Shown one piece after another: positions 16,947-31,687 of a stretch of DNA of 64,000 nucleotides. This stretch comes from Sphingobacterium sp. UGAL515B_05 (lineage in GTDB: Bacteria > Bacteroidota > Bacteroidia > Sphingobacteriales > Sphingobacteriaceae): positions 682,001 to 746,000 of the forward strand of contig NZ_CP109907.1 of assembly GCF_033097525.1 (NCBI RefSeq). The letters run 5' to 3'. A program made the translations under genes and the position numbers. Within the stretch, counting starts at the first letter, position 1. Every line of letters starts with the position of its first letter. The notes below the pieces were generated by a model, which worked only from the letters and a program-made list of their open reading frames with translations, ran no database searches and was not told the DNA's origin.

Positions 16947-18440
16947 CTAAAGATTCGGATTTCGAACCGTCTCTTCGTATGGTATAGCAAATAAATAATA
17001 AGGACTGTTTTCAACAAAATTAGAACCATTAGGAAATTTAGTAACCCGGTGCCCTTGACCATTAACCAGCTTAGGCTTACCGTCTGCACCTACAATTTCT
17101 ACTTGAATTGGTTTTCCCTCCGCATCAAGATAGGACTTACGCACAACCTTTCCCTGAGTCCGGAGAATATCCGACAAAGCAAATCCTTCACCCCAAAGTT
17201 CCTTGCGTCTTTCAATAAGAATGGAAGCAATTAATTGTCCATTATCATTTCCTGAAAACAGTTTAGCGTTTCTAGCCGCCCGTAATTTATTCAGCGCTGC
17301 TACTGCTTTATCGTTTTCACCAGCTCTTGCATAACCTTCAGCCGCTATCAAAACCATTTCAGAAGCACGCATGTATACAATATCTCCAATTAAATTGGAC
17401 TTAAACTTAAACTTCTTATACCGTAGGAAACCTTCCCGACCGGGTAAATTATCCCATTCAAATAAAGCGTAACGCACATCACTGGTATCGAATAAATCTT
17501 TAAAATAAGGATCGGCCATAAAACTATAGTAATAAGATCCAGCTGACGACACATCCAAATAATGAAATGTATAACTTGCCACATTTTGCTCGTTAGTCTG
17601 CTGATGTCCCCAAATCCACTCACTATTTCCAAGATCATTAAAACCGGCCTGATAATCTGACGGAGTCATTAAATTATACTTCTGCGCTGCTTTTTCGGCA
17701 TATTCAGCGGCTAACTTCCATTCGCCTACTTGCAAATAGGTCCTCGCAAGCAGACCATACACAACATTAATATTTATTTCATATTTTTCACGTATACCAG
17801 CCGAGGCTAATAATCCTTCACTGTCTTTGAGATCTTTCAATATAAGCTCATACACTTCTGCCTGTGTGGACCTTGGTTTTCCTTCAGTCGACAATGTACT
17901 TGGTTCCGTATAAATTGGAACCGATTTCGCATTTTTATCCTTTAAATAGCTAAATTGATAAAAGGTTGCCAAATTCAAATAGGAAAAAGCGCGCAAAGCT
18001 TTTGCTTTTCCTTTCAATACATTCTTAGATTCAACAGCCCCTTCAGCACCATCCACTTTCGCGATCACGTTATTCATATTATCGATCACTTTATAAAACA
18101 TAATCCAAAAAGAATTGACACGATTAGACCGATTGTTTGTTAATTCGGTAAATGCATACGCATCGCGATAACCGTATTTGGTCGTCACCGCAACATCACT
18201 TCCCATCGCATCACTTGTACGCATTACTGCCGTATAGCCTGGATTGGCATAAGTAAAATAGGTATCATTTAAGTACTTCCAGGTACCGTTGATCACCGTA
18301 GCAACATTGTCGGTATTTTTAAATACTTCACCTTCGGGCACAGAAGTGGTCGGATCCAATTCAAGCGCATCCTTACACGATGCATTCATTAAGGAGAGCG
18401 CCAATATGATATATACAATTTTTAGTTTCATGATTTTCAT
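16947..18440 (-). CDS. SusD/RagB-family surface lipoprotein
   Basis: Lipoprotein signal with lipobox NASC (Cys at residue 22), then DALELDPTTSVPEGEVF, the usual SusD opening in which a motif after the lipidated Cys is followed by a TPR-like helical domain (KALRAFSYLNLATFYQF, GLLARTYLQVGEWKLAAEYAEKA). The C-terminal part has the SusD closing sequence (RRKELWGEGFALSDILRTQG and FAIPYEETVRNPNL). The second Met (18431) is an alternative start. It lies 27 bp downstream of its SusC partner and ends in a terminator, so the pair is one transcriptional unit. The ligand is unknown. Confidence 0.92.
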   Translation of the reverse strand: MKIMKLKIVYIILALSLMNASCKDALELDPTTSVPEGEVFKNTDNVATVINGTWKYLNDTYFTYANPGYTAVMRTSDAMGSDVAVTTKYGYRDAYAFTELTNNRSNRVNSFWIMFYKVIDNMNNVIAKVDGAEGAVESKNVLKGKAKALRAFSYLNLATFYQFSYLKDKNAKSVPIYTEPSTLSTEGKPRSTQAEVYELILKDLKDSEGLLASAGIREKYEININVVYGLLARTYLQVGEWKLAAEYAEKAAQKYNLMTPSDYQAGFNDLGNSEWIWGHQQTNEQNVASYTFHYLDVSSAGSYYYSFMADPYFKDLFDTSDVRYALFEWDNLPGREGFLRYKKFKFKSNLIGDIVYMRASEMVLIAAEGYARAGENDKAVAALNKLRAARNAKLFSGNDNGQLIASILIERRKELWGEGFALSDILRTQGKVVRKSYLDAEGKPIQVEIVGADGKPKLVNGQGHRVTKFPNGSNFVENSPYYLFAIPYEETVRNPNL

Positions 18441-18467
18441 TTAAATTCTCAGATTAACAATAAGGCA

Positions 18468-21400
18468 TTAAAAAACAAGCTGAATACCACCGGATATTGT
18501 TCGCATTGCCGGATAGCGAAAATAGGTCGCCCCATTCACCGTCTGTTCTGGATCCATTCCTTGATGAGCATAAAATGTCAATAGATTTTCGGCAGTTGCA
18601 AAGACACGAAGTTTTTCTACACCTATCCGCTTCAATAAATCCGAAGGTAATCTATAGCCCAAACTCACATTTTTAAGGCGTGCATAAGTGCCACTGTAAA
18701 GAAAACGTGTGGACGAAGAGGTCCAATTCAAATTATCAGTTGTCAATTTGGGCACATCGGTTTGCGTATGCTCAGGCGTCCAGCGCTCGAGGATCTCCTT
18801 GGACCAAGCACGTCCCGGATTATTACCACTATGCATAAGCTGAATATAATCGTTATCTAATATCTGTCCACCCAAACTAAAACTCAACAAAGCAGACAAA
18901 TCAAAATTTTTGTAGGCGAAACTGTTTTGAATCCCACCGACAAGATCTGGCAATGAAGTCCCGGCAATAAAATTACCGGCCTTGCTGTATTCCGAAGTTT
19001 TTTCACCAGTTTTATTACCATCCTTATCAGCAGTATACCATTGCGGCAGACCGTTCTCTGGATTTACTCCAGCCCATTCCGGCAGATAAAAATCATAGAT
19101 ACTTCCGCCTACACGCAAAAGTTTATTCCCTGTAATGATCGGCTTGTTATCCTTCGGCAACGCTGTAATCTTGTTTTTGTAATGCGAAAGATTGACGTCT
19201 AAATTCCATTTAAAATTTTCATTTCGAACCGGGACAGTACGAATATCCACGTCGACACCCGTATTTTTCAGCGCACCAATATTTGCATCATAGCCCGTAT
19301 ACCCTGTTGAATAAGCCATTGGCATAGTAAACAGCAAATCCTTACTCCGACGGTTAAAGTACTCCACACTCAATGAAACGCGGTTATCAAATGCAGAGAC
19401 ATCGACACCTACGTTCAAATTGAGGTTCGACTCCCATTTTAGATCTGGTGTAGCCAACCGACCGGTATACGTTCCGCCTTTACCCAAACTATTTGCAATG
19501 GTATAAAGTCCTTTATAAGCATAATAGGTACCTAAATTATCGTTTCCTTGTCCGCCATAACTTGCTCTTACCGTCAACTGATTAATCGTTGTGTTATCCT
19601 TCAAAAATTCTTCCTGTTTCAGCTTCCATGATCCTCCCACAGACCAGAATGTTCCCCAACGTTTTGCTGGCGAAAAGCGCGACGAACCATCGGTACGCAA
19701 CGAAGTTGATAAATAATACTTATTGTCATAGTTATATTCCGCTCTTCCCAAAAAACTCAACAACCTATAATCAACACTAGATCCTGTAAAATTATTGAGT
19801 TGTGAAGCAGCAGCAGGTTCATCGAAGTAAGGGAGCACAAATTGCTGTCTGCTACCATTGATGTTACTACTGTTAAAATCATAGTATTCCTGACCGGCCA
19901 AAACATTGAGGTAATGCAAACCAAATTGCTTCTCGTAAGTCAATAAATTATTCCAGGTCTGCGCTACTGTACGAACATTTGAACGATAGACATATCCACC
20001 GGTATTCACACCATCTCCCAACAAAGGATTGGTATAGTCGTGTGTATTCCCATTGATATAATCAACATTATATGTCGACTTAAATTTTAAATTTTTGGAA
20101 AACAACACTTCGAGATAAGTTCGTGCAGATAGATTTTCCCGACGGATATCATTCCTATCCAAAGGAAGAGAGGCTGCTAGGTTACTGCGTGGTGTGGCAC
20201 CACTTGGCCGATATTCTCCAAAATCATAAATCTTATTTCCAGCTCCATCAAGCACATATGAACCATCCGCATTACGCTCGTAGTATGGATAAAAAGATGG
20301 CACCAGTCTCGTAAAATTTATGATGTTAGCCGTATTGCTGTCTTCAGACTGCGGATATTTTTGTTGTGTACTGCTACCACCTATATTGAGACCGACATTT
20401 AACCAGGATTTCACCTTACTGTCGATATTTGCGCGTAGATTGTACCGCTTAAATCCAGATTCGATCGCTATACCCTGATCGTTCAGATAACCACCTGAAA
20501 TATAATAGGTGCTTTTGGCACTACCTCCGCTAAATCCTAGGTCTGCCTGTGTACGCACTCCAGTACGTTGCAATACGTCGGTCCATGGATCATCCCATAG
20601 TGTCTTCGCACCAGCAACCAACTTACCATCTACTCCGACCGGCTGCGGGTATTGACTGCCATACGGATTGATATTTAAATCTGTCAATACGGTCTTGCTT
20701 GCGTTGGAGGCCGCTTGCTCTGCTGTAAGGCCATCTGACAGGTTTTTGTTTCTCAAAGCTTCCCAATAGAGCTGAAAATATTCATCGGTCGATACCTGAT
20801 CATAGTCACGGACTGCACGGGTTGAATAGCCCTGTGTAAAATTGAGATTAATCTTGGTGTTGTCGGAAGACACACCGGACTTAGTTGTAATAATAATCAC
20901 ACCATTCGCCCCTCTGGAGCCGTAAAGTGCACTTGATGCTGCATCTTTTAAAACGGAGATAGACTGAATGTCATTCGGATTGATGGAGTTGATATCCCCG
21001 GCATAAGGACTACCATCCAACACGATCAGAGGTGAACTGGAGGCATTAATGGAGCCGATGCCCCTAATACGGATGGCTGCTTCAGTACCTGGTTGTCCCG
21101 AGGACGCTACGGACTGTAAGCCCGGTACCTGTCCCTCCAAGGCCTTCGTAATATTTGATACCTGTCTATTTTCAATAGCTTTGCTGCTCACCGTACTGAC
21201 CGATCCAGTTATGTTTGTACGTTTGGCAGTACCGTAAGCCACCACCACCACCTCTTCCAAATCTGTACTGGAGGGTTTCAAGGACAATGTTAAGTTTGTA
21301 CTTGTTGCTTTCAGCTGTTGAGATTCATAACCTACAAAAGAAAATTCCAATACAGGTAATGCGTCACCTGTGACATTGATTGTAAACTCTCCTTTTGAAT

Positions 21401-21578
21401 TCGTTAAGGTTCCTTGATTTTGCCCCGAAATGCGAACATTTACTCCAGGAAGTAGGTGACCGGTATTGGCATCAACAACTTTTCCTTGTATAGCCCGCTG
21501 CTGAGCATACAACCTGTTCATAGTAATACCTGATAATGCTATCGCAGCAATAGGAATGTATTTAAGTTTTGCGTACAT
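18468..21578 (-). CDS. SusC/RagA-family TonB-linked outer-membrane transporter
   Basis: Signal peptide (residues 1-25, ending NRLYA), CarboxypepD-regulatory-like domain (about 30-110), LEEVVVVAYG junction, plug (about 118-240, with GQVPGLQS, RIRGIGSINASSSPL and KDAASSALYGSRGANGVI) and a barrel ending SGGIQLVF. Full length at 1036 residues. The SusD partner follows directly. Upstream lies the LytTR regulator gene at 21809-22534, on the same strand, separated by 230 bp that contain two related hairpins and a TATATTTG element. The pair therefore probably has its own promoter but could also belong to the regulon of that regulator. Confidence 0.93.
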   Translation of the reverse strand: MYAKLKYIPIAAIALSGITMNRLYAQQRAIQGKVVDANTGHLLPGVNVRISGQNQGTLTNSKGEFTINVTGDALPVLEFSFVGYESQQLKATSTNLTLSLKPSSTDLEEVVVVAYGTAKRTNITGSVSTVSSKAIENRQVSNITKALEGQVPGLQSVASSGQPGTEAAIRIRGIGSINASSSPLIVLDGSPYAGDINSINPNDIQSISVLKDAASSALYGSRGANGVIIITTKSGVSSDNTKINLNFTQGYSTRAVRDYDQVSTDEYFQLYWEALRNKNLSDGLTAEQAASNASKTVLTDLNINPYGSQYPQPVGVDGKLVAGAKTLWDDPWTDVLQRTGVRTQADLGFSGGSAKSTYYISGGYLNDQGIAIESGFKRYNLRANIDSKVKSWLNVGLNIGGSSTQQKYPQSEDSNTANIINFTRLVPSFYPYYERNADGSYVLDGAGNKIYDFGEYRPSGATPRSNLAASLPLDRNDIRRENLSARTYLEVLFSKNLKFKSTYNVDYINGNTHDYTNPLLGDGVNTGGYVYRSNVRTVAQTWNNLLTYEKQFGLHYLNVLAGQEYYDFNSSNINGSRQQFVLPYFDEPAAASQLNNFTGSSVDYRLLSFLGRAEYNYDNKYYLSTSLRTDGSSRFSPAKRWGTFWSVGGSWKLKQEEFLKDNTTINQLTVRASYGGQGNDNLGTYYAYKGLYTIANSLGKGGTYTGRLATPDLKWESNLNLNVGVDVSAFDNRVSLSVEYFNRRSKDLLFTMPMAYSTGYTGYDANIGALKNTGVDVDIRTVPVRNENFKWNLDVNLSHYKNKITALPKDNKPIITGNKLLRVGGSIYDFYLPEWAGVNPENGLPQWYTADKDGNKTGEKTSEYSKAGNFIAGTSLPDLVGGIQNSFAYKNFDLSALLSFSLGGQILDNDYIQLMHSGNNPGRAWSKEILERWTPEHTQTDVPKLTTDNLNWTSSSTRFLYSGTYARLKNVSLGYRLPSDLLKRIGVEKLRVFATAENLLTFYAHQGMDPEQTVNGATYFRYPAMRTISGGIQLVF

Positions 21579-21639
21579 CGTAAGAATGCTTTACTAAATA
21601 AGTTAAGTGTGATTAAATACAAAAAACACAGTGGCTCCT

Positions 21640-21686
21640 TGCATTCCAACAAAATCTACCGAATAAGTAGTTTTTATTGGAATGCA
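21640..21686. repeat. Inverted repeat 1 in the SusC leader region
   Basis: TGCATTCCAA (21640-21649) faces TTGGAATGCA (21677-21686), a perfect 10-bp pair. The 27 bp between them can extend the pairing (AAAAnCTAC with GTAGTTTT). It lies downstream of the candidate -7 box for the SusC gene, so it would be at the 5' end of the transcript. Confidence 0.7.
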
Positions 21687-21692
21687 AATATA
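21685..21692 (-). promoter_or_regulatory. -7 element for the SusC gene at 18468-21578
   Basis: CAAATATA on the plus strand reads TATATTTG on the minus strand, an exact TAnnTTTG match about 107 bp before the SusC ATG. No TTG at the usual spacing. It sits exactly between the two inverted repeats and overlaps the end of the second. Confidence 0.5.
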
Positions 21693-21729
21693 TAACAAAA
21701 TCTATTGAATTAATAGATTTTGTTATATA
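21689..21729. repeat. Inverted repeat 2, perfect 18-bp arms
   Basis: Positions 21689-21706 and 21712-21729 are perfect reverse complements around a 5-nt loop GAATT. The arm shares the word AACAAAATCTA with the interior of inverted repeat 1 (offset 46 bp), so the two dyads appear related. It could end transcription of the regulator gene or be an operator. Confidence 0.8.
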
Positions 21730-21808
21730 AAAACACAAAACACTGTAAATGAAATATTTAAAATTAAAAACTAAGCTTTCAAAAGTTATTTAGTAAGCTA
21801 ACTCACTA

Positions 21809-22534
21809 TTATTGATCAAGCCATTTTTGAAACTTCGGAGATCGTTCCTCACTAACAATGACTACAATTCCCGGTGGAGTTGAGGGTATTAACTCTAATT
21901 TAATTCTATTCCGGCTAATTTTTAACATGGATTGAATCGCATCTATTCGGACAAGAAATTTACGATTGATCTGAAAAAAAACTGTTGGATCTACCTGTGT
22001 AACGAGATGAGTGATGGTATCTTCAATAATATATGCAATTCCAGATCCTTTTTCTACAGCATACAGCTCTTTGTCTTCCGCCATAAAATAAGCAATATCA
22101 GCAATGGCCAGCGACTTTAAAAAATTACCATATTTCACTAGAAAACGCTGTTTGAGCCGAGGTTCTACTTTGGGCAGTAGCGGTTCGATACGTTTCATAA
22201 CCTCAGTCAACTCATCGCTGTCGAAAGGTTTTAACAGATAGGCATAACCCTTATTTTGAAAGGCCTCCAACGCATATTGTTCGTAAGCAGTCGTAAAAAT
22301 CAACGGCACATCGATAGATACCTGCTTAAAAATTTCAAAGCTCAGCCCATCCATCAGGTGGATATCCATAAAAATCAGATCGAATTGATTTCTATTGATT
22401 GTCACCACCGCTTCCTGCACCTCTTTTGCATTGGTAAAGATCAGTTCACTTTCTCCATAGAGTGCAGTCAACATCTCCTTTAAGCCTACAAAAGCCCAGT
22501 CTTCGTCTTCGACAATCAGTATTTTCCATCCCAT
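21809..22534 (-). CDS. LytTR-family response regulator
   Basis: N-terminal receiver domain (residues 1-120) with the acidic pair E9/D10, phosphoacceptor D57 (FDLIFMDIHL), a switch Thr near 80 (PLIFTTAYEQ) and the conserved Lys in YLLKPFDSDEL. The C-terminal LytTR DNA-binding domain covers about 135-241 (RFLVKYGNFLKSLAIADIAYF, HLVTQVDPTVFFQINRKFLV). Its likely kinase is the LytS-type protein at 30293-31687, on the same strand but separated by the protease, SusC and SusD genes. A hairpin terminator lies between SusD and this gene, so the regulator may be expressed at a lower level or from its own start. Confidence 0.93.
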   Translation of the reverse strand: MGWKILIVEDEDWAFVGLKEMLTALYGESELIFTNAKEVQEAVVTINRNQFDLIFMDIHLMDGLSFEIFKQVSIDVPLIFTTAYEQYALEAFQNKGYAYLLKPFDSDELTEVMKRIEPLLPKVEPRLKQRFLVKYGNFLKSLAIADIAYFMAEDKELYAVEKGSGIAYIIEDTITHLVTQVDPTVFFQINRKFLVRIDAIQSMLKISRNRIKLELIPSTPPGIVVIVSEERSPKFQKWLDQ

Positions 22535-22608: not shown

Positions 22609-23928
22609 TTATTTCAACAGATCGGGATTATTATTGATTGCTTCCTGTGGATAGCGTATCACATAACGAGGATCGTTCTGTTGCAGGGTTACCGTTCTGC
22701 CGAAACTACTGTGCGTGATCGCAGGACGTGTCGTCCGTTTTAGATCATACCAACGTAATCCCTCTAGCGCCAGTTCACGCTTACGCTCCAGTAAAACCGC
22801 ATCTAGCAACTGTGCTGTTGACAAACTTGCGTCAGCCTTAGTTTCTTTGGCATAGGCATCTGCTGTGAATCTATTTTTCTTTAAAGCAGATAGGTATTTC
22901 AACGCTTCTGCAGTATTCCCCAACCGTACATAACATTCTGCTAAAGTCAAATAAAGATCAGCATTTCTAAAACTCACGTTAAAACGGTTTTCTCCACCTT
23001 TGAGGGATACAAAATCGCCACCACTTTTTTGGAAGTAACGACCTTTCCTCAAGTCACCATCCGAATATGCAGACAATAAGGAAGACGAAATAAATGAGCT
23101 CGAGCGAACTTCAGGAACAGACACTTTTTCCAGGGCCATAATCATCTCGGCAGATTCAAAATCATTCGGAAGTTGACTTCCCCCAACATTCAAGTCAACC
23201 AATTTATCGTTTATAGTGAGTGCCTTTTTTGCCGCATCAACCGCTGCTTGCCATTCTCCACGATATAAACGAACACGTGCGGCCATTGCATAAGCGGCAC
23301 GTTTGCTAAAGCGATAATTAGCACCTTTAACCTGATCATCCACTGTTAATAAACTAGTCCCCTTCTCCATATCAGTTAGGATCTGCGCATAAGACTCTCC
23401 AATGGTCGCAGGCACAAAACGCTGCTCCAAATCAATTTTCGTTGACAAAGAGACACCGCGAAGCCCTGCATTATTAGCCGAATAGACCTCACTGTAAAGA
23501 TTTAATAACTCAAAATGTGCATAGGCGCGCATCAGATAGGCTTCCCCTTTAATCTGATCCACCGTCGGATTGCTAGCCAACTTTTCATCAATAGTACTGA
23601 TGACCTGATTGGTATAAAAAATACTGCTATAAAATGTCAAGTAAGGATAAGGAATCGTTGTCGGATCAGGGTTTTGATCATTCCAAAGATAGATATCTTT
23701 GGTTCTAGCAGCATCGGTCGAACTTTCATCTAACACTAACTCATCCGTACGTAGGGATAGATAAGACTTGTGTGCAGGAAAGTTTGCATAGCTACTTGTC
23801 ATTAACCCCCTAAAATCACTTTCTGAAGCAGGAATGACAGTGCCTACCGGTTTTATATCTAAATATTTATCACAGGATGTCAATGCACTAGCGGCCATGA
23901 TCATTCCAAAATAAATTATTTTTTTCAT
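22609..23928 (-). CDS. SusD/RagB-family surface lipoprotein
   Basis: Short for the family at 439 residues. Lipobox LTSC (Cys 19) then DKYLDIKPVGTVIPASESDFRGL, the usual SusD opening. The helical body shows RAYAHFELLNLYSEVYSA and KRAAYAMAARVRLYRGEWQAAVDAAKKAL; the C-terminus has LLERKRELALEGLRWYDLKRTT and IRYPQEAINNNPDLL. It lies 20 bp after SusC, which itself lies 19 bp after a metalloprotease gene. This tight spacing suggests co-transcription and that the ligand is a peptide or protein fragment. Confidence 0.92.
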   Translation of the reverse strand: MKKIIYFGMIMAASALTSCDKYLDIKPVGTVIPASESDFRGLMTSSYANFPAHKSYLSLRTDELVLDESSTDAARTKDIYLWNDQNPDPTTIPYPYLTFYSSIFYTNQVISTIDEKLASNPTVDQIKGEAYLMRAYAHFELLNLYSEVYSANNAGLRGVSLSTKIDLEQRFVPATIGESYAQILTDMEKGTSLLTVDDQVKGANYRFSKRAAYAMAARVRLYRGEWQAAVDAAKKALTINDKLVDLNVGGSQLPNDFESAEMIMALEKVSVPEVRSSSFISSSLLSAYSDGDLRKGRYFQKSGGDFVSLKGGENRFNVSFRNADLYLTLAECYVRLGNTAEALKYLSALKKNRFTADAYAKETKADASLSTAQLLDAVLLERKRELALEGLRWYDLKRTTRPAITHSSFGRTVTLQQNDPRYVIRYPQEAINNNPDLLK

Positions 23929-23948: not shown

Positions 23949-26900
23949 TTAAAAACTTGCTGACAGACCAAAGGCAAAAGATTTACTGATCGGTTGCGCA
24001 TAATAGTTACCATAGGTCTCTGGATCAAAATACCCGTCGTAATTAGCACCGATAACAAAAAGGTTACGTCCTTCTACATTCACACGCAAATTGCCTGCGC
24101 CAATTTTTTTGCTTAGTGCGGCCGGTAAGGTGTAACCTAAACGTATACTATTGATGCGGACATAACTCATTTTCTTGGCCCAGATATCATATAGGTTGAA
24201 TGATTTGATCGGATCGTTGCTTTCCATCCAACCAAAGGCCATCCAGCGATTATTTAATTCAGAACTTATACTTCCCAATGCGGGCATATTTCCGTCCTTT
24301 TGAACCGCCTTCAACAGATCTACAGTGTAATTCTGCCCCCGATCTACCAAAGCCGGGTTATAGGTGGGTGTACGGGTCACCCAACGTTCCAAATTAAATA
24401 CCGCAGAGATCGCAAGATCAAAGTTAGCATAACGGAAACGGTTGGTCATACCGCCAACAAACTTAGGATCTTTACTGCCTTTATATTTAAATTTAGCGCG
24501 GTATTCTGCAGCTGTCATATCGGTTTGTGAAATATACCCTGGCAGGAACTCTGCCCAAGGATCATATAATCCATAGAACTCCTCAAAGCTTGAAACCGTT
24601 CCATCTTGATTTCTAAATTGCATCACCCCATCTTTATCCAATCCGGCTGTTTCCAACACATATAAACCATTAATTGGGCGTCCTACCTGTGTTTCAAGGG
24701 AATAAGCTTTTGGATTAGCCAGCACCTTTAATAGTTTGTTGTTATTATGTGCAATATTAAAATCTGTTGACCAAGAAAATTTATCAGTTTGGATTTGACG
24801 GCTTGAGATAGTCAATTCAACACCTTGATTTCTTGCGGAAGCCCAATTAACTTTTACATTTTGGAAACCATTTTCTAATGGAATTGCGCTATAGTCGATC
24901 AAGTCTGTGCTTTTTCTGTTATAATAATCAACAGTGATATTTAATCTATTTTTCCATAAGCCCAAATCAATTCCGGCATTATATGACTGTGTCTTTTCCC
25001 AGCGAAGTTTATCATTGGCAGGCATATCGACAAATACTGTTCCTTCATTATTACCTGGTAACATGGTAATGTTATTATAGTATCCAACAATAAAAGGATA
25101 GGTATTGCGATCAATATTTCCTTGCGTACCATAAGAGGCCCGCACTCGGAGATCAGACAAGGCTGTTTTTCCTTTTATAAACTCTTCTTCCAATACATTC
25201 CATGATCCAGAAATAGACCAAATCGGAAGAAAGCGGTATTTAGGATCTACACCAAACATATTCGAACCGTCTTGTCGAATACTTGCATATAGGTTGTATT
25301 TCCGATCAAATGTATAGGTTGCATTCCCATAGAACGAGGCATAAGAACTTTCCACAAATCCTTTTCTATATTGCACGAACCTTGAATCATTTTGGTATGT
25401 ACTGTTTGGAAAGATAAGCGTTTGAGTCGTCAATGTGGCCGGGTTGTATCCAAAGCCTTTAGTCGTTACAATCTCACTCTTGCTTCGTCTCAGTTCTGTT
25501 CCGCCCATTACTTCCAGTTCGTGGCGATCGTTCCAAGTTTTATTGTATTTTAAGTACGTTTTCCAATTGTATTGAAACACGCTATTATTGGAATTCTCGA
25601 TCGTTCCACCTACAGGTAAGAAATACTTATTTGTCTTACTAGCGGCATCATAGTAACGTGTAGCAGCGCGCAATTTGCGGGTATTATAACTTTCCTGATC
25701 AGCAAATTTTTCTGTTTTATTTTCATCAAATTGTAAACCAAATTCTGTTCTCAAGGATAACTGTGGTAAAATAGCGTATTCTAAATAACTGATTGCTTTT
25801 AACGCCTTATTCGTCAATGTATATTTGGTATTCTCACGTTCCTCTATTGCATTAAAAGGAATATAGGTATCTTTTTCAAAACCCTCGATATCTGGGTCAT
25901 AGTTAAATTTCCCAGATTGATCATAAATAGAAAGATATGGGTTGACTGAACGGACATAATAACTTGGGTTCGTAAAAGCATCCCGATCCTGAATTGGATT
26001 TTGTCTATTCGAGACCGAGCCCAATAAATTAATACCGGCTTTAAATCGATCGTTGATTGTAAAGTCATTATTTAGCGTGAGGGAATAACGACGGAGATCT
26101 ACCGCTTTTGTCGCTCCTTTTTCATCATAAAAACCACTGGACAAATAGTAGCGATGTCCATCATTACCACCAGAGATGGATGCCGAATATTGTTGATTAA
26201 TTGCCTGACGGTACAATTCTTTCCCCCAGTCTGTTTGTTGTGTGCGCAATTGATTGATTGACTGTTGTACTTCCGGCGACAGAGCTGCTAAACCACCAGA
26301 ACGATAAGCATCCAATGCATTTGCTTTGTTTAATATCCGCATAACAGCCCCCTTATCTGTACGATAATTTAAATCGGTACGGTCGGCCATCAAAAGTTCG
26401 AAATCTATTTTTTCACTGGCATCCATCAGATTAAGTTTACCAAAGTCTGGACGCTGTGTTACAAAGGTGTTGGCCGAAACCTGTAATTTTGCAGGTCCAG
26501 GTTTACCCCTTTTTGTGGTAATTACAATCACCCCATTTGCTGCCCTCGCACCATAGATTGAAGTCGCTGCAGCATCTTTCAAAACGGTAATATCGGCAAT
26601 ATCATCGGGGTTGATGCCTGCAATAGGAAGATTTGTCAAACTATTAAGATCGTCTTTATCTATTCGGTTTGGCATTGCAGTGCCTTCGATAGGCAAGCCA
26701 TCAATCACCCATAAGGGATCCTGTGTACCATTCAGCGATACCGTACCACGGATACGGATCTGTGGTGCACTATTTGGTCCACCGTTAAAATTGCTCAACT
26801 GCAAACCCGCCACCTGACCAGCAAGCATTTCATCGATCGATGCAACCCCCGTCTGTTTGATGTCTGCTACATTGATTTTATTGTAAGCCGTCGTATTCTT

Positions 26901-27287
26901 ACGTTTTTTGATATCCGTATAACCTGTTACGATCACTTCATCTAACGACTCGCCACTAGGCTGTAGTAAAATTGTTTTATGATCCTGGAATACCGGCACC
27001 TGAATACGCTGGTACCCGACATAGCTAATCGTTACATATTTTAAATTACTAGGCACTTTTAAGCGAAATTCACCAGCCGCATCGGTCAATGAACCCAAGG
27101 CCGACTGCTGCACCTGATTAGGTACGCCGATATCTTCTGCTACTGCCGAACTTTCAACGACAACCGTCGCCCCCACGACCGGTTTTAACGTGACCGCATC
27201 CAAAACCTTTCCTTTCAGTTCCCTGGATTCCTGCGCATGCACAACATGCACACACATGAAGGTCAACGGTATTAAAAACTTATTCAT
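23949..27287 (-). CDS. SusC/RagA-family transporter of the protease-linked unit
   Basis: Signal peptide (residues 1-18, ending HVVHA). The CarboxypepD-regulatory-like domain (about 22-115) carries an insertion of about 15 residues (AVAEDIGVPNQVQQSALGS) relative to the other two SusC proteins here. Then comes the junction LDEVIVTGYTDIKKRKNTTAY, a plug (about 120-265, GQVAGLQLSNFNGGPNSAPQ, LWVIDGLP, KDAAATSIYGARAANGVI) and a barrel ending AFGLSASF. At 1112 residues it is the longest of the three. It is placed between the metalloprotease and SusD. The link with a protease favours import of oligopeptides, as in the RagAB system, but that is inference. Confidence 0.93.
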   Translation of the reverse strand: MNKFLIPLTFMCVHVVHAQESRELKGKVLDAVTLKPVVGATVVVESSAVAEDIGVPNQVQQSALGSLTDAAGEFRLKVPSNLKYVTISYVGYQRIQVPVFQDHKTILLQPSGESLDEVIVTGYTDIKKRKNTTAYNKINVADIKQTGVASIDEMLAGQVAGLQLSNFNGGPNSAPQIRIRGTVSLNGTQDPLWVIDGLPIEGTAMPNRIDKDDLNSLTNLPIAGINPDDIADITVLKDAAATSIYGARAANGVIVITTKRGKPGPAKLQVSANTFVTQRPDFGKLNLMDASEKIDFELLMADRTDLNYRTDKGAVMRILNKANALDAYRSGGLAALSPEVQQSINQLRTQQTDWGKELYRQAINQQYSASISGGNDGHRYYLSSGFYDEKGATKAVDLRRYSLTLNNDFTINDRFKAGINLLGSVSNRQNPIQDRDAFTNPSYYVRSVNPYLSIYDQSGKFNYDPDIEGFEKDTYIPFNAIEERENTKYTLTNKALKAISYLEYAILPQLSLRTEFGLQFDENKTEKFADQESYNTRKLRAATRYYDAASKTNKYFLPVGGTIENSNNSVFQYNWKTYLKYNKTWNDRHELEVMGGTELRRSKSEIVTTKGFGYNPATLTTQTLIFPNSTYQNDSRFVQYRKGFVESSYASFYGNATYTFDRKYNLYASIRQDGSNMFGVDPKYRFLPIWSISGSWNVLEEEFIKGKTALSDLRVRASYGTQGNIDRNTYPFIVGYYNNITMLPGNNEGTVFVDMPANDKLRWEKTQSYNAGIDLGLWKNRLNITVDYYNRKSTDLIDYSAIPLENGFQNVKVNWASARNQGVELTISSRQIQTDKFSWSTDFNIAHNNNKLLKVLANPKAYSLETQVGRPINGLYVLETAGLDKDGVMQFRNQDGTVSSFEEFYGLYDPWAEFLPGYISQTDMTAAEYRAKFKYKGSKDPKFVGGMTNRFRYANFDLAISAVFNLERWVTRTPTYNPALVDRGQNYTVDLLKAVQKDGNMPALGSISSELNNRWMAFGWMESNDPIKSFNLYDIWAKKMSYVRINSIRLGYTLPAALSKKIGAGNLRVNVEGRNLFVIGANYDGYFDPETYGNYYAQPISKSFAFGLSASF

Positions 27288-27306: not shown

Positions 27307-29913
27307 TTAGTTTAATTCTAAGGTATTTGCAATACGTAGTAAAAGATCCATGTAATGCGATTTTGTAGTCGCGTCACCTGTCCCCTGCTTTTGTTTCAGC
27401 AACTGGTAAATCTCATATAGTTCAGCACGTTTATAGGTCAACATATCGGAAGTGCGTATCATGCCAGTGACATGTACATTCCGAAGTCCCGTTTGTGAAG
27501 AGGATGCATGTTGCGGATGTAAACATAGATCAGGTTGTGTCGCTTCAACCAGTTGCTCAATGCCTGCCAGTTTCTTCGCATTTAATTTCTCCATGGATTT
27601 ATTGGTAGATACCATCAGAACATCCACATAGTTTTGTTGTAGCATCCGTGTCTTAAGATCCAACGATTGTCCACTGATGGTTTTAGCAAAGATCGTCTGA
27701 CGTACTGAAGTTAGAAACTCAGGTGCACTCCATGCTTTTCTACTTCCAAAAAGATTTTCCATCTCAACCATACGCAGCAAACGTTCATCATTGACCAGTT
27801 TATACAACATAGCGTATTGAAATTCACGCTGTAAGTTATAAGGAGCATACTCAAATGGTCCTATTGGAGAATCTTTCAATGGAAAAGTTTTTGCCATCAG
27901 CTCTGGGACGAACAACCACTCGGGCATGTAAAAGACATTCTTCTTGAGGTATTCCAAAGCACGCACTTGTTTGTCTTTTGGTACTGGACTATAGGCATCT
28001 TTTTGATCACCCAAAACTGCATTTTCCAGATATATACCCCCGATATTATTTAAGACATGGTCCGCATACGCGTACCATTGTCCGACTACACCCATATATA
28101 ATTTACCGGCACGGTAGTAATCATCACCTACATTAGTGGTCCAGTTGATAATATTAGGCATCATACGACGCAGATTCAGCATGCCGTATTCACCAGCTTT
28201 CATCGCGTCGTCACCAAGATCTTCCGACTGAGCCCGCGGATCAACGATATTTTTAGAATCTTGCTGTTCACCGTAATGGTAAATAGGATCATGTACATGG
28301 CTGTCAATTTCCTTTCTCAACAAAGGAATTTCATCCCAAGGTTGCGTTTTGCCATACCAACGGTAAGCCCAGCCAATAGCATACTTGTCGTAAGCACCGA
28401 TCACGGGAGTGATCTGTTCCACACCATCTTCGGGTTGTGCCACATAGTTAAAACGAGCGTAATCCATAATTGAAGGAGCAGTCCCACCCATTTTGGCGGT
28501 GAAGCTTTTGCTACGCAATGAATCAACAGGAAAACTTGCCGAGGAGCCCATGTTATGCATAAGACCCAAGGTATGCCCAATTTCATGGGAAGAAACAAAG
28601 CGAATAGCATGTGCCATTTTTTCATCCGAAAACACATTGGATCGTACCGATGTATCTACTATACCTGTTTGTATACGCATCCAGCTATTTAAAATCGTCA
28701 TGACGTTGTGCCACCAGATCACATCGGCTTCAAGGATCTCCCCCGAGCGCGGATCGACCACAGAAGGTCCCATGGCATTAGCCTGAGCAGATGCTGCATA
28801 AACGATCGAGGAAACATTGGCATCATCGGGATCAAATTTGACACTATCCGGCTGTTGTTTGGCCAGAATTGCATTTTTGAAACCAGCAGCTTCAAAGGCA
28901 ACCTGCCAATCATGAACTCCATCGATGATCGCTTGTCGCCACTGTTTTGGTGTCGCCGGATCTAAATAAAAGACAATCGGTTTCTTTGGTTCGACCAACT
29001 CCCCTTTCAGATACCGCGCTTTATCTTCGTCACGCGGTTCTAAACGCCAGCGATTGACCAGATTTTTCTTATCCAGTTCCTGTTGTTTATCATTAAAATA
29101 CCACCGTGGTGAAGTAAAGAAACCTACTCTTGGATCTGCAAACCGCGCAACCATAGGATTTTCAGGCAATTCGTAAAGGTTACTTGTAATTTCTAAAGAA
29201 ACCGGTACAGATTCATTACCTTCAGTCACCTTGGTAGAGAATACAGACTTCACAACGATATTATTCGCATAGGATTTAATGTCTTCAACGGTAGATATAC
29301 TCGTTTTAGGTGAAGTTCCCAAACCCAAAGACGTAAACACATCCGTAAAGCTTTTTTCTGAACCATCAAATACTTTGTTGACTTTGATCACCACGGCACT
29401 TGAATCCTTTGAATAGCTTTCAATTTTAAAAGATTCAATATAAGAAGGGCGATAATTATCATATACCGAAGCGGCTATTGCGTCACCTTTAGGGACTTCA
29501 ACCTGAGGCTTAATCTCCGAAACCCACACCTCTTTCTTCTCTTTGCGAAGTGTAAACCGGATGACCTTATTTTCATAATTCATCCCTTTGTTTACCCCAG
29601 CCTCATTCAAGGCCAACGGTACAGAAGATAGCTTTTGGATCAACAATATATCTTGCCCCATCTTTTTCAATGGAATTTCAAAGTAGTAGTTGTTTTCTTT
29701 ACGGATCACAGTAAACATTCCACTATCCACACGCGCATCTTTCAACAATTTGTCGTATGCAGCTGTAGAATCTTTCTTTGCCGTAGAATCTTTGGCAGAA
29801 GTAACCGTCTCTTTTTTTCTTAAACCTACTGTTTGCAATATAGAACAAGATTGCATTAGACCCGCCGAAAATAAAAGACCAATGGCTAGCTTAGTATAAG
29901 TGTTTTTCATCAA
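27307..29913 (-). CDS. HExxH zinc metalloprotease lipoprotein (DUF5117/DUF4953 type)
   Basis: Lipobox MQSC (Cys 23), a Lys/Ser-rich linker (33-52), a beta-rich N-terminal region (about 60-250) and a metzincin-like catalytic domain with HEIGHTLGLMHN: zinc ligands H443, H447 and H453, catalytic E444. Next to it is SVVDPRSGEILEADVIWWHN, also typical of the family. The C-terminal 300 residues are helical (KVLEYLKKNVFYMPEW-type region). The 868-residue length is normal. Being a lipoprotein in a SusCD unit, it is probably on the cell surface and cuts proteins whose products pass to the transporter. It is the first gene after the intergenic region with the 21-bp-phased repeats. Confidence 0.9.
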   Translation of the reverse strand: MMKNTYTKLAIGLLFSAGLMQSCSILQTVGLRKKETVTSAKDSTAKKDSTAAYDKLLKDARVDSGMFTVIRKENNYYFEIPLKKMGQDILLIQKLSSVPLALNEAGVNKGMNYENKVIRFTLRKEKKEVWVSEIKPQVEVPKGDAIAASVYDNYRPSYIESFKIESYSKDSSAVVIKVNKVFDGSEKSFTDVFTSLGLGTSPKTSISTVEDIKSYANNIVVKSVFSTKVTEGNESVPVSLEITSNLYELPENPMVARFADPRVGFFTSPRWYFNDKQQELDKKNLVNRWRLEPRDEDKARYLKGELVEPKKPIVFYLDPATPKQWRQAIIDGVHDWQVAFEAAGFKNAILAKQQPDSVKFDPDDANVSSIVYAASAQANAMGPSVVDPRSGEILEADVIWWHNVMTILNSWMRIQTGIVDTSVRSNVFSDEKMAHAIRFVSSHEIGHTLGLMHNMGSSASFPVDSLRSKSFTAKMGGTAPSIMDYARFNYVAQPEDGVEQITPVIGAYDKYAIGWAYRWYGKTQPWDEIPLLRKEIDSHVHDPIYHYGEQQDSKNIVDPRAQSEDLGDDAMKAGEYGMLNLRRMMPNIINWTTNVGDDYYRAGKLYMGVVGQWYAYADHVLNNIGGIYLENAVLGDQKDAYSPVPKDKQVRALEYLKKNVFYMPEWLFVPELMAKTFPLKDSPIGPFEYAPYNLQREFQYAMLYKLVNDERLLRMVEMENLFGSRKAWSAPEFLTSVRQTIFAKTISGQSLDLKTRMLQQNYVDVLMVSTNKSMEKLNAKKLAGIEQLVEATQPDLCLHPQHASSSQTGLRNVHVTGMIRTSDMLTYKRAELYEIYQLLKQKQGTGDATTKSHYMDLLLRIANTLELN

Positions 29914-30292
29914 ATAATTATTTTTGAGCTCGCTTTCAAAGGCATAAATGAGCTCGTGGCATTCTATTTGTTTTTCACTGGTGACGACGTAACATCAACC
30001 GAAAATCCATTGTTGATCCTAAGCCTGTTTTAGCTTCGGATGTTGAATCAGAAAGTAATTGCATCTATTCCATGGAGGTCAATCATAAGTTGCACTTTAT
30101 AAAGACCTTGGCATTTTATGGGATAAGATTAGGCTAATCACAAACTAAAACCGCTGGATTAAGAGCCAAATTTGTTAAAAATATTGTACAGAATAACACA
30201 TAAAGGGATGAACACGTCGTTCAGAGTGATGAACACGCACTATAAAAACATGAATACGTAGACACCTCCAATTTCATTATTCATATACAGCA
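29914..30292. other. 379-bp intergenic region between the kinase and the protease
   Basis: No gene seen. It carries the three phased repeats (30207-30258) and a near-consensus minus-strand -7 box, CAAATTTG at 30167-30174, which would start transcription toward the protease with a leader of about 250 nt. Confidence 0.6.
30207..30258 (-). promoter_or_regulatory. Three 21-bp-phased direct repeats, probable LytTR-regulator binding sites
   Basis: GATGAACACG at 30207-30216 and again at 30228-30237, and CATGAATACG (8/10) at 30249-30258. Starts are exactly 21 bp apart, two helical turns. On the minus strand each reads CGTGTTCATC or CGTATTCATG; two of the three contain the GTTnAT core of LytTR-type sites, which are known to be direct repeats with about 21-bp period. 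They lie 33 bp upstream of a possible -7 box for the protease-SusCD operon. Confidence 0.65.
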
Positions 30293-31687
30293 TTATGCGA
30301 GTGGTAATCGCACAATAAATTGCCCCGACGCTATCCCGAAATGAAAACCTGCCATGGCATAGTAACTATAGATGGATGACAAATAATTGAGCCCGTACCC
30401 CTCACCTTCAAGCTCTGCACCCTGTCTGGGCTGCCAGTTGTTGCTAACCTCCAGCAGGTTGGTTTCGGGTATATAGATTAAACGAATAGTAAGCGGATTC
30501 TCTATCGAAATGCGTGTATGCTTTATCGCATTCTCAATCAGCATTTGCAAACCTAAACGTGGAATTTTCTGTTCTAATAATTCTCTTGGAATATTTATAT
30601 CCATATCCTGCAATGCCGCGCCGAACCGCACCTGCTGCAAAAAGAAATAGGCTTTGGCCAATTCCAGTTCCTCCCTTAGCGTAGACCATTCTGCCTCATC
30701 TGTACGCAACATTTTACGATAAACCTTGGTCATCTTTCCAATAAAAGACTTGGCCAGTTCATCGTCTTTTCCGATCAGGTACTGAAGCGACCCAAATGTA
30801 TTGAATAGAAAATGTGGATTGATCTGTTGTCGCAATTGTACGAGACGCATCTGCGTATATTCATTTTCCTGCTTCAGGGCCAGCAATTTCAATTGTTGAA
30901 TCTTGCGTCGCTCCATAACATTGAAATAGATCAATACCATCGCCACCAACATTAACCCCACCCCGAGCAAGATACTATAGGTCAACAGTTCCTGGATTTC
31001 TTCTTCAATGCTCAACAAGAGAACATACACCTTGATTTCACCACCAACAAACAGAATGTTACAGGGATACGAATTAACCATCACGTCCAGCTGCAGAAAA
31101 TCTGACTGAACAATTTGTCCCTGTTTTGACACAGCGGAAGTATTTCTCTTTCCCCATGTTCGATTATCAGGAGAATAAACACAGATGCCGCGGTCATCAT
31201 AGATCTCAAAATAAGCCCGCCTTCCGAAATTGAGCTTTGCAAAATAAGCATTCAGCTTTTCGATATCCATATAGATATGATATAACCGATGATTTATTGT
31301 TCGTGTCCGTAACAATGTTAGCATCCTATGGCTCATATAATCAGGTTGGCCGACCGGGATAATGACCAATAAGGAATCACCACTTTCCTTTGGATCAAAC
31401 GTGGGTTGTTCCAATATTTTTTTTTCAGAAAGGTACAGATCCTGCTGTAGCAATTCCAATTGCTTTTTGACAAGAAACATATTCTCATCCGCAAAATCGA
31501 TCAATATTCTTTTCTTAAGACGATCAACTTTATGATGGATAACACCGAGCAATCCCCCTCCTACCAGCAGCAGCAACAACAAACAGACAATCAGGATAAT
31601 ACTATTTTTCTGTTCGGCATTTTTAAATCGAAATTTCACGGCGCAAAAATACATCAAAATTTTCAAAGCTTTAGCAAACAAGTTCAT
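30293..31687 (-). CDS. LytS-type sensor histidine kinase
   Basis: Two transmembrane helices (about 29-50 and 234-256) bracket a periplasmic sensor of about 180 residues with a stretch RRAYFEIYDDRGICVYSPD that resembles Cache/PDC-type sensors. The cytoplasmic part has a short coiled coil (260-285), then the His_kinase motif QINPHFLFNTFGSLQYL with phosphoacceptor H292, and an ATPase domain with the N-box LIENAIKH. These features define the LytS/YehU class that pairs with LytTR regulators. The matching regulator is at 21809. The longest start was kept; a Met at residue 12 is a possible alternative. The intergenic region downstream carries the candidate binding sites. Confidence 0.9.
   Translation of the reverse strand: MNLFAKALKILMYFCAVKFRFKNAEQKNSIILIVCLLLLLLVGGGLLGVIHHKVDRLKKRILIDFADENMFLVKKQLELLQQDLYLSEKKILEQPTFDPKESGDSLLVIIPVGQPDYMSHRMLTLLRTRTINHRLYHIYMDIEKLNAYFAKLNFGRRAYFEIYDDRGICVYSPDNRTWGKRNTSAVSKQGQIVQSDFLQLDVMVNSYPCNILFVGGEIKVYVLLLSIEEEIQELLTYSILLGVGLMLVAMVLIYFNVMERRKIQQLKLLALKQENEYTQMRLVQLRQQINPHFLFNTFGSLQYLIGKDDELAKSFIGKMTKVYRKMLRTDEAEWSTLREELELAKAYFFLQQVRFGAALQDMDINIPRELLEQKIPRLGLQMLIENAIKHTRISIENPLTIRLIYIPETNLLEVSNNWQPRQGAELEGEGYGLNYLSSIYSYYAMAGFHFGIASGQFIVRLPLA

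What the first reader, a model, noticed from the sequence alone, without database searches (positions are those of the whole stretch)
30207..30258. Three direct repeats spaced exactly 21 bp upstream of a protease-SusCD operon with its own LytTR regulator
Seen: GATGAACACG, GATGAACACG and CATGAATACG start at 30207, 30228 and 30249. Known: LytTR-type regulators bind pairs of direct repeats with about 21-bp period and a GTTnAT-like core, which appears on the minus strand in two of the three repeats (GTTCAT; the third reads ATTCAT). Inferred: this is the binding array of the regulator at 21809, activating a promoter near 30170 that drives the protease and SusCD genes.
Basis: partly seen in the sequence, partly recalled or inferred. 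Interest (0 to 1): 0.7.

Follow-up and report, generated by a model that had tools for sequence, protein, structure and literature searches.

The report
Conserved LytTR operator before peptide-uptake operon
Three short DNA repeats in front of a protease and nutrient-import operon sit in the same place, at the same 21-base spacing, in related bacteria of several genera, so they are very probably the docking site of the operon's own two-component regulator.

Summary
Of 79 operons with these genes (window included; 36 same genus, 27 same family, 16 other families), 56 have two TTCAY words exactly 21 bp apart behind the kinase gene, and 77 do with one mismatch allowed. Of 78 kinase loci without the protease, 1 and 2 do. 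Exact pairs cover four of nine genus groups. In the window's genome the strict pattern stands above chance only here. In one genome the regulator gene lies on the other side of the kinase, and the repeats stayed between kinase and SusC. The conserved core is TTCA(C/T), not GTTnAT. It resembles the E. coli YpdB operator, also a 21-bp direct repeat. Best reading: a dedicated LytTR operator array, probably activating, with positive feedback. Binding, activation and signal are untested. It is a new member of a known kind.

The parts
30250..30258 (-). repeat unit R1, CGTATTCAT (distal)
   Evidence: aligned in 19 of 19 close relatives, window included
30229..30237 (-). repeat unit R2, CGTGTTCAT; TTCAT invariant in 19 of 19 close relatives
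30208..30216 (-). repeat unit R3, CGTGTTCAT (proximal); degenerate (e.g. CGTGCTCGT) in a 9-genome clade, spacing kept
30164..30185 (-). 22-bp block AATATTTTTAACAAATTTGGCT, invariant in 19 of 19 close relatives; probable core promoter
   Evidence: promoter role inferred; no sigma-70 type match found
30293..31687 (-). LytS-type membrane histidine kinase; sensor part (model residues about 50-228) looks like a Cache domain
   Evidence: Pfam His_kinase; weak Cache matches in some relatives, none significant in this protein itself; structure model and PDB matches
27307..29910 (-). metzincin protease (DUF4953/DUF5117/DUF5118), first gene of the putative regulated operon
   Evidence: start
23949..27287 (-). 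SusC/RagA TonB-linked outer membrane transporter
22609..23928 (-). SusD/RagB lipoprotein
21809..22534 (-). response regulator: receiver plus LytTR DNA-binding domain; putative binder of the array
   Evidence: invariant D57 and K102 in 22 aligned regulators; model matches LytTR structures

Best explanation
The three units are the operator array of the operon's own LytTR response regulator. The upstream kinase senses an extracytoplasmic small molecule through a Cache-like domain and phosphorylates the regulator. The regulator binds the 21-bp direct repeats side by side on one face of the DNA, next to a promoter at about 30164-30185, and switches on protease, SusC, SusD and its own gene, giving positive feedback. 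Shown: the array, its spacing and position, its conservation, the gene set and the Pfam domain content of kinase core and regulator. Inferred: that this regulator binds it, that the effect is activation, the promoter, the Cache assignment, and the signal (amino acids or peptide products are a guess from the Cache fold and the protease-SusCD cargo).
For: Exact TTCAY pair at 21 bp near the kinase stop codon in 31 of 36 genus, 17 of 27 family and 8 of 16 class operons; with one mismatch 36 of 36, 26 of 27 and 15 of 16; kinase loci without protease 1 and 2 of 78; 50 shuffles average 0.04-0.12 operons per group. For exact pairs no other spacing from 12 to 40 bp exceeds 2 of 36, 9 of 27 or 3 of 16. 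Without naming a word, 9-mers that agree at 7 or more places occur at lag 21 in 34 of 36 genus operons (next best below 42 bp: lag 31, 12 of 36) and in 21 of 27 family operons (next best 11). In 19 close relatives unit letters are conserved (mean majority 0.96, 0.98, 0.85) and spacers less so (0.70, 0.73). In the genus, 36 of 93 genomes have the protease, the same 36 whose kinase operon and array I saw (in L042 the contig ends inside the regulator gene). Three kinase homologues without protease or regulator nearby lack the array (L058, L059, L071). In L167 the order is regulator-kinase-array-SusC-SusD with the protease apart on the other strand. A known LytS/LytTR system, E. coli YpdA/YpdB, uses the same design: GGCATTTCAT direct repeat, sole direct target yhjX (PMC4847170, passages).
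Against: No binding data. The genome holds 21 places encoding homologues of this regulator, itself included, so another LytTR protein could bind. Exact pairs occur in four of nine genus groups only (the window's genus, g14, g27, g29); the others rest on one-mismatch pairs, and with one mismatch other spacings also reach 18 of 36 (13 bp), 15 of 27 (15 bp) and 6 of 16, so some such pairs (e.g. TTCAA in L094, L098) may be chance. Relatives are not independent samples. The 78 control loci are imperfect: in most of them a regulator match lies directly behind the kinase, so no promoter is expected there. No genus genome kept the protease and lost the kinase, so the link could not be broken there. 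R3, nearest the promoter, is degenerate in 9 of 19 close relatives. Activation is not shown: the LytTR regulator CoxC represses from a three-repeat operator (PMC11347149, passages).
Confidence: 0.86

Rival explanations
1. The array is bound by the same regulator, but as a repressor that is relieved by the signal, like CoxC.
For: CoxC, a LytTR protein, represses from three direct repeats overlapping -35 (PMC11347149, passages). In several two-unit relatives the proximal unit is close to a TATTTG-like stretch that may be the -7 element (promoter role is my guess).
Against: YpdB, a LytS/LytTR response regulator with this layout, induces its target. In the window the array lies upstream of the invariant block; R3 starts 31 bp before it. 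The regulator gene lies inside the operon, which suits positive feedback.
Confidence: 0.12
2. Another LytTR protein or an unrelated transcription factor binds the array, and the neighbouring regulator acts elsewhere.
For: 21 places in the genome encode homologues of the regulator at E <= 1e-4, this one included.
Against: The strict pattern is found only here in this genome above control level. Array, kinase and protease occur together in the genus, and array, kinase and regulator stay together in the rearranged L167.
Confidence: 0.08
3. The repeats are a chance or non-regulatory repeat.
For: Two-copy short repeats are common by chance; the upstream region of the window's other SusC also has a 9-mer pair agreeing at 7 of 9 places at 21 bp, though not of TTCAY type.
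Against: 0 of 100 shuffles give two such matches in the window; spacing and position are conserved in 77 of 79 operons by the one-mismatch rule and in 56 of 79 exactly.
Confidence: 0.01

Closest known systems
E. coli YpdA/YpdB (annotated PyrS/PyrR) and the yhjX operator
   Same: LytS-type kinase plus LytTR regulator; direct repeat GGCATTTCAT with 21-bp period; sole direct target (PMC4847170, passages). The published probe has TTCAT at three places exactly 21 bp apart, as the window does, and its TTCATTCC is close to the TTCACTCC of many relatives.
   Different: Regulators share only 24% identity over 213 residues. The window kinase seems to have a Cache-type sensor. The target is a protease-SusCD operon, and the regulator gene is inside it.
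RcoM1 and CoxC operators
   Same: LytTR domains on three evenly spaced direct repeats (CoxC 18-21 bp; RcoM1 TTCNNGCA, 12-13 bp spacers) (PMC11347149, passages).
   Different: CoxC carries sensor and DNA-binding domain in one protein and represses; repeat letters differ. That RcoM1 is also a single-protein sensor is partly recalled.
E. coli BtsS/BtsR
   Same: LytS/LytTR pair; the best NCBIfam model for the regulator is BtsR (65.8 bits, cut-off 246).
   Different: Far below the model cut-off; 25% identity over 212 residues. I did not compare the BtsR motif.

Membership tests
LytTR operator (direct repeats bound by a LytTR-type response regulator) | direct repeats of 9-11 bp separated by 11-13 bp (the paper says two repeats) | tested here: met
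   9-bp units, 12-bp spacers, 21-bp period; definition from PMC4847170 (passages)
LytTR operator (direct repeats bound by a LytTR-type response regulator) | bound by a LytTR-domain protein | not testable with these tools
   only association by conservation and gene context
LytTR response regulator | receiver domain plus LytTR domain above Pfam cut-offs | tested here: met
   PF00072 49.2 bits (cut-off 30.2), PF04397 47.7 bits (cut-off 22.6); predicted fold matches ComE and LytTR domains
LytS-type histidine kinase | His_kinase domain PF06580 with PHFLFN-type H box | tested here: met
   75.9 bits, cut-off 25.2; P291 H292 F293 L294 F295 N296 invariant in 18 aligned kinases
Cache sensor domain in the kinase | Pfam Cache model above its cut-off in the window protein | tested here: inconclusive
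   window kinase only sCache_2 at E 0.22, below cut-off; dCache_1 matches 7 of 18 relatives at E <= 0.5, best 2.1e-5; model of middling confidence (pLDDT 78, pTM 0.43) aligns to Cache domains with Z 10.4-12.4
YpdA/YpdB (PyrS/PyrR) system | orthology of the regulator to YpdB | tested here: not met
   24% identity over 213 residues; none of the 25 NCBIfam models shown reaches its cut-off. No tree was made.
YpdA/YpdB (PyrS/PyrR) system | operator built of TTCAT units at 21 bp | tested here: met
   resemblance of the operator only

The most novel reading that the evidence does not exclude
A vertically kept one-regulator-one-operon switch spread over several families of Bacteroidota: Cache-type kinase and LytTR regulator control protease-SusCD uptake through a TTCAYTCC array whose recognition code is shared with E. 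coli YpdB, so that one LytTR recognition rule may hold across phyla. The third unit, present in the window and in the published yhjX probe, would then be a general feature of such operators.
Probability: 0.4. Interest if true: 0.65.

Novelty: new member of a known kind. Interest (0 to 1): 0.5.

Why it matters
If right, it gives a defined operator for a LytTR regulator of Bacteroidota, ties a sensor kinase to a protease-SusCD uptake system, and offers a system, perhaps with a single target, in which signal, binding and output can be tested directly. I found no paper on it in the held library. The conserved spacing and the alignable regulators would also allow a test of how LytTR loops read DNA.

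Tried and rejected
Promoter and terminator consensus scan of 29850-30350: no sigma-70 type promoter and no terminator found; Bacteroidota promoters are not covered by that tool. Rfam scan of 29700-30500: one match at E 0.65, far below its cut-off, judged chance. The region before the window's other SusC (21579-21808) has one TTCAY word and the 500 bp before the other protease copy of the genome (L110) none, so no TTCAY pair at 21 bp in either. A looser pattern over 12 genomes hit the operon array in 7 of 12 and gave scattered other matches in all 12, most of them not looked at; it says little about regulon size, and only the strict search in the window's own genome was used. A script meant to chain units with relaxed letters over-extended some arrays (7 and 6 units in L072, L074), and its unit counts are not used. 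I asked whether the GTTnAT core is conserved; it is not. I looked for genus genomes with the protease but without kinase or array as a negative control; there are none. A Pfam scan of eight other window proteins was made for context only. A PDB sequence search with the regulator alignment mainly listed receiver domains; one with the protease gave a single match, to a metzincin domain.

Rows dropped or not examined: only kinase matches with E <= 5e-51 were followed (19 close ones, window included, and 20 distant); all 27 genomes outside the genus were fetched, 12 full-length matches outside the family (299 bits or more) were fetched, and the rest of the 115 matching genomes (238 bits or less) were taken as other LytS kinases without a check. 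In three class loci the regulator does not follow SusD at once or is elsewhere (L163, L171, L167), and at 31-39% identity the regulator assignments there rest on tblastn best matches. That g27 and g29 are Chryseobacterium and Flavobacterium is inferred from likeness to the named loci.

Full report
Observation. Read on the coding strand of the operon they are CGTATTCAT (R1), CGTGTTCAT (R2) and CGTGTTCAT (R3), with exact 21-bp steps. Two matches of the paired pattern at up to 3 mismatches in the window, against a mean of 0.06 in shuffles, put chance aside. In the whole 6.36-Mb genome no other place scores better than 3 mismatches, which is the control level.

Surroundings. All genes run on the minus strand: LytS-type histidine kinase (31687..30293), then 382 bp with the repeats, then metzincin protease (from 29910), SusC, SusD and the receiver-LytTR regulator (22534..21809). 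The next SusCD pair (21578..16947) has no such repeat before it. The genus is very probably Sphingobacterium: the same-genus contig G017:C1 and the named Sphingobacterium corticibacterium contig have the same length (2,002,851), and their kinase matches have the same coordinates. This is inference from that match.

Comparison within the genus. The kinase was sought in 93 genomes. I fetched 38 loci besides the window. With the window, 36 carry kinase, protease, SusC, SusD and regulator in the same order; in one of them, L042, the contig ends inside the regulator gene. Three kinase homologues (L058, L059, L071) have no match to protease or regulator in the fetched 16 kb, though two have weak SusC and SusD matches, and they have no array. 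Independently, 36 of the 93 genomes hold the protease at E <= 1e-180, and they are the same 36. In the 19 close relatives, window included, the alignment of the region shows conserved units, freer spacers, and a 22-bp block invariant in all 19, which I take as the core promoter. In nine of them R3 has drifted while R2 is unchanged and R1 is kept, with one change each in L051 and L055.

Comparison beyond the genus. In 399 genomes of the family (the genus among them) the kinase at E <= 1e-35 gave 27 further genomes from six other genus groups; all 27 have the five genes in order. In 395 genomes of the phylum an alignment search gave 12 full-length matches in two more families. All 12 have the five genes; in 11 of the 12 the order is kept, with extra sequence between SusD and the regulator in L163 and L171. 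Four named loci of Chryseobacterium and Flavobacterium were added. In seven of these 16 loci the first unit lies inside the 3' end of the kinase gene.

Numbers. Counting TTCAC or TTCAT pairs exactly 21 bp apart near the kinase stop: 31 of 36, 17 of 27, 8 of 16; with one mismatch in one partner 36 of 36, 26 of 27, 15 of 16. Kinase loci without the protease: 1 and 2 of 78. Exact pairs come from four of the nine genus groups; all 17 of the family are in one group, g14. With one mismatch other spacings also score (up to 18 of 36, 15 of 27 and 6 of 16), so the exact pairs carry the argument. The two operons that fail the one-mismatch rule, L082 and L177, have TTCGC and CTCAC pairs at 21 bp when read by eye. 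There are 75 distinct downstream regions among the 79, and many are close relatives, so these counts are not independent events. In six family loci the second and third unit are 22 bp apart.

A telling exception. In L167 the regulator gene lies upstream of the kinase, and the protease gene is apart and on the other strand. The array sits between kinase and SusC, with two TTCACTC words at 21 bp, and no TTCAY pair at 21 bp precedes the protease. So there the array goes with kinase, regulator and SusC, not with the protease.

What reads it. The regulator has a receiver with D57 invariant in 22 aligned regulators, the usual phospho-acceptor place (recalled), and a LytTR domain. Its model (pLDDT 86, pTM 0.53) matches ComE and isolated LytTR domains in the PDB. 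The kinase model (pLDDT 78, pTM 0.43) matches the GanS kinase domain (Z 13.5, rmsd 4.7, 174 aligned) and, over residues about 50-228, Cache sensor domains of amino-acid chemoreceptors and others (Z 10.4-12.4). Cache Pfam models match some relatives weakly (dCache_1 7 of 18, best 2.1e-5) and the window kinase not significantly. A shared fold does not prove the ligand.

Known relatives of the design. YpdB of E. coli binds a direct repeat of GGCATTTCAT and has one direct target (PMC4847170, passages). The probe used there carries TTCAT at three places 21 bp apart; I do not know whether the authors discuss the third. Three-repeat LytTR operators are known for RcoM1 and CoxC (PMC11347149, passages). 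So neither the spacing nor the triplet is new. What seems new is the operator and its partners in Bacteroidota, and its conservation over several genera. Ten paper searches of the held library showed no paper that, by title, start of abstract or the passages read, treats this operon; of four papers I saw passages, of the others only listings, and most subscription papers are not in that library. One listed paper reports mutations in a LytTR regulator and in a SusD gene of Flavobacterium johnsoniae, without linking them to such an operon in the passages seen (PMC10197871).

Verdict. I file it as a new member of a known kind.

Noticed in passing
window 29911-30163, minus strand: Between the invariant 22-bp block and the protease ATG lies a leader of about 253 bases with 60 columns invariant in 19 close relatives; most of the distant genus operons have a shorter one. 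It could hold a leader RNA or peptide.
   Followed up: no
L162, L163, L165, L166, L169, L170, L176: In these Flavobacterium-type loci the first repeat unit lies inside the last codons of the kinase gene, so operator and protein sequence constrain each other.
   Followed up: partly
E. coli yhjX promoter probe (PMC4847170, Table 1): TTCAT occurs at three places exactly 21 bp apart, one more than the two sites named in the passages I read; the 56-base stretch is found in 5346 of 5426 E. coli genomes.
   Followed up: partly
L058, L059, L071: Kinase homologues (35-39% identity) without protease or regulator nearby and without the array; their partner regulator is unknown.
   Followed up: no
window 16947-21578: A second SusC-SusD pair follows the regulator gene after about 230 bp, without the array before it, so probably under separate control.
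   Followed up: partly
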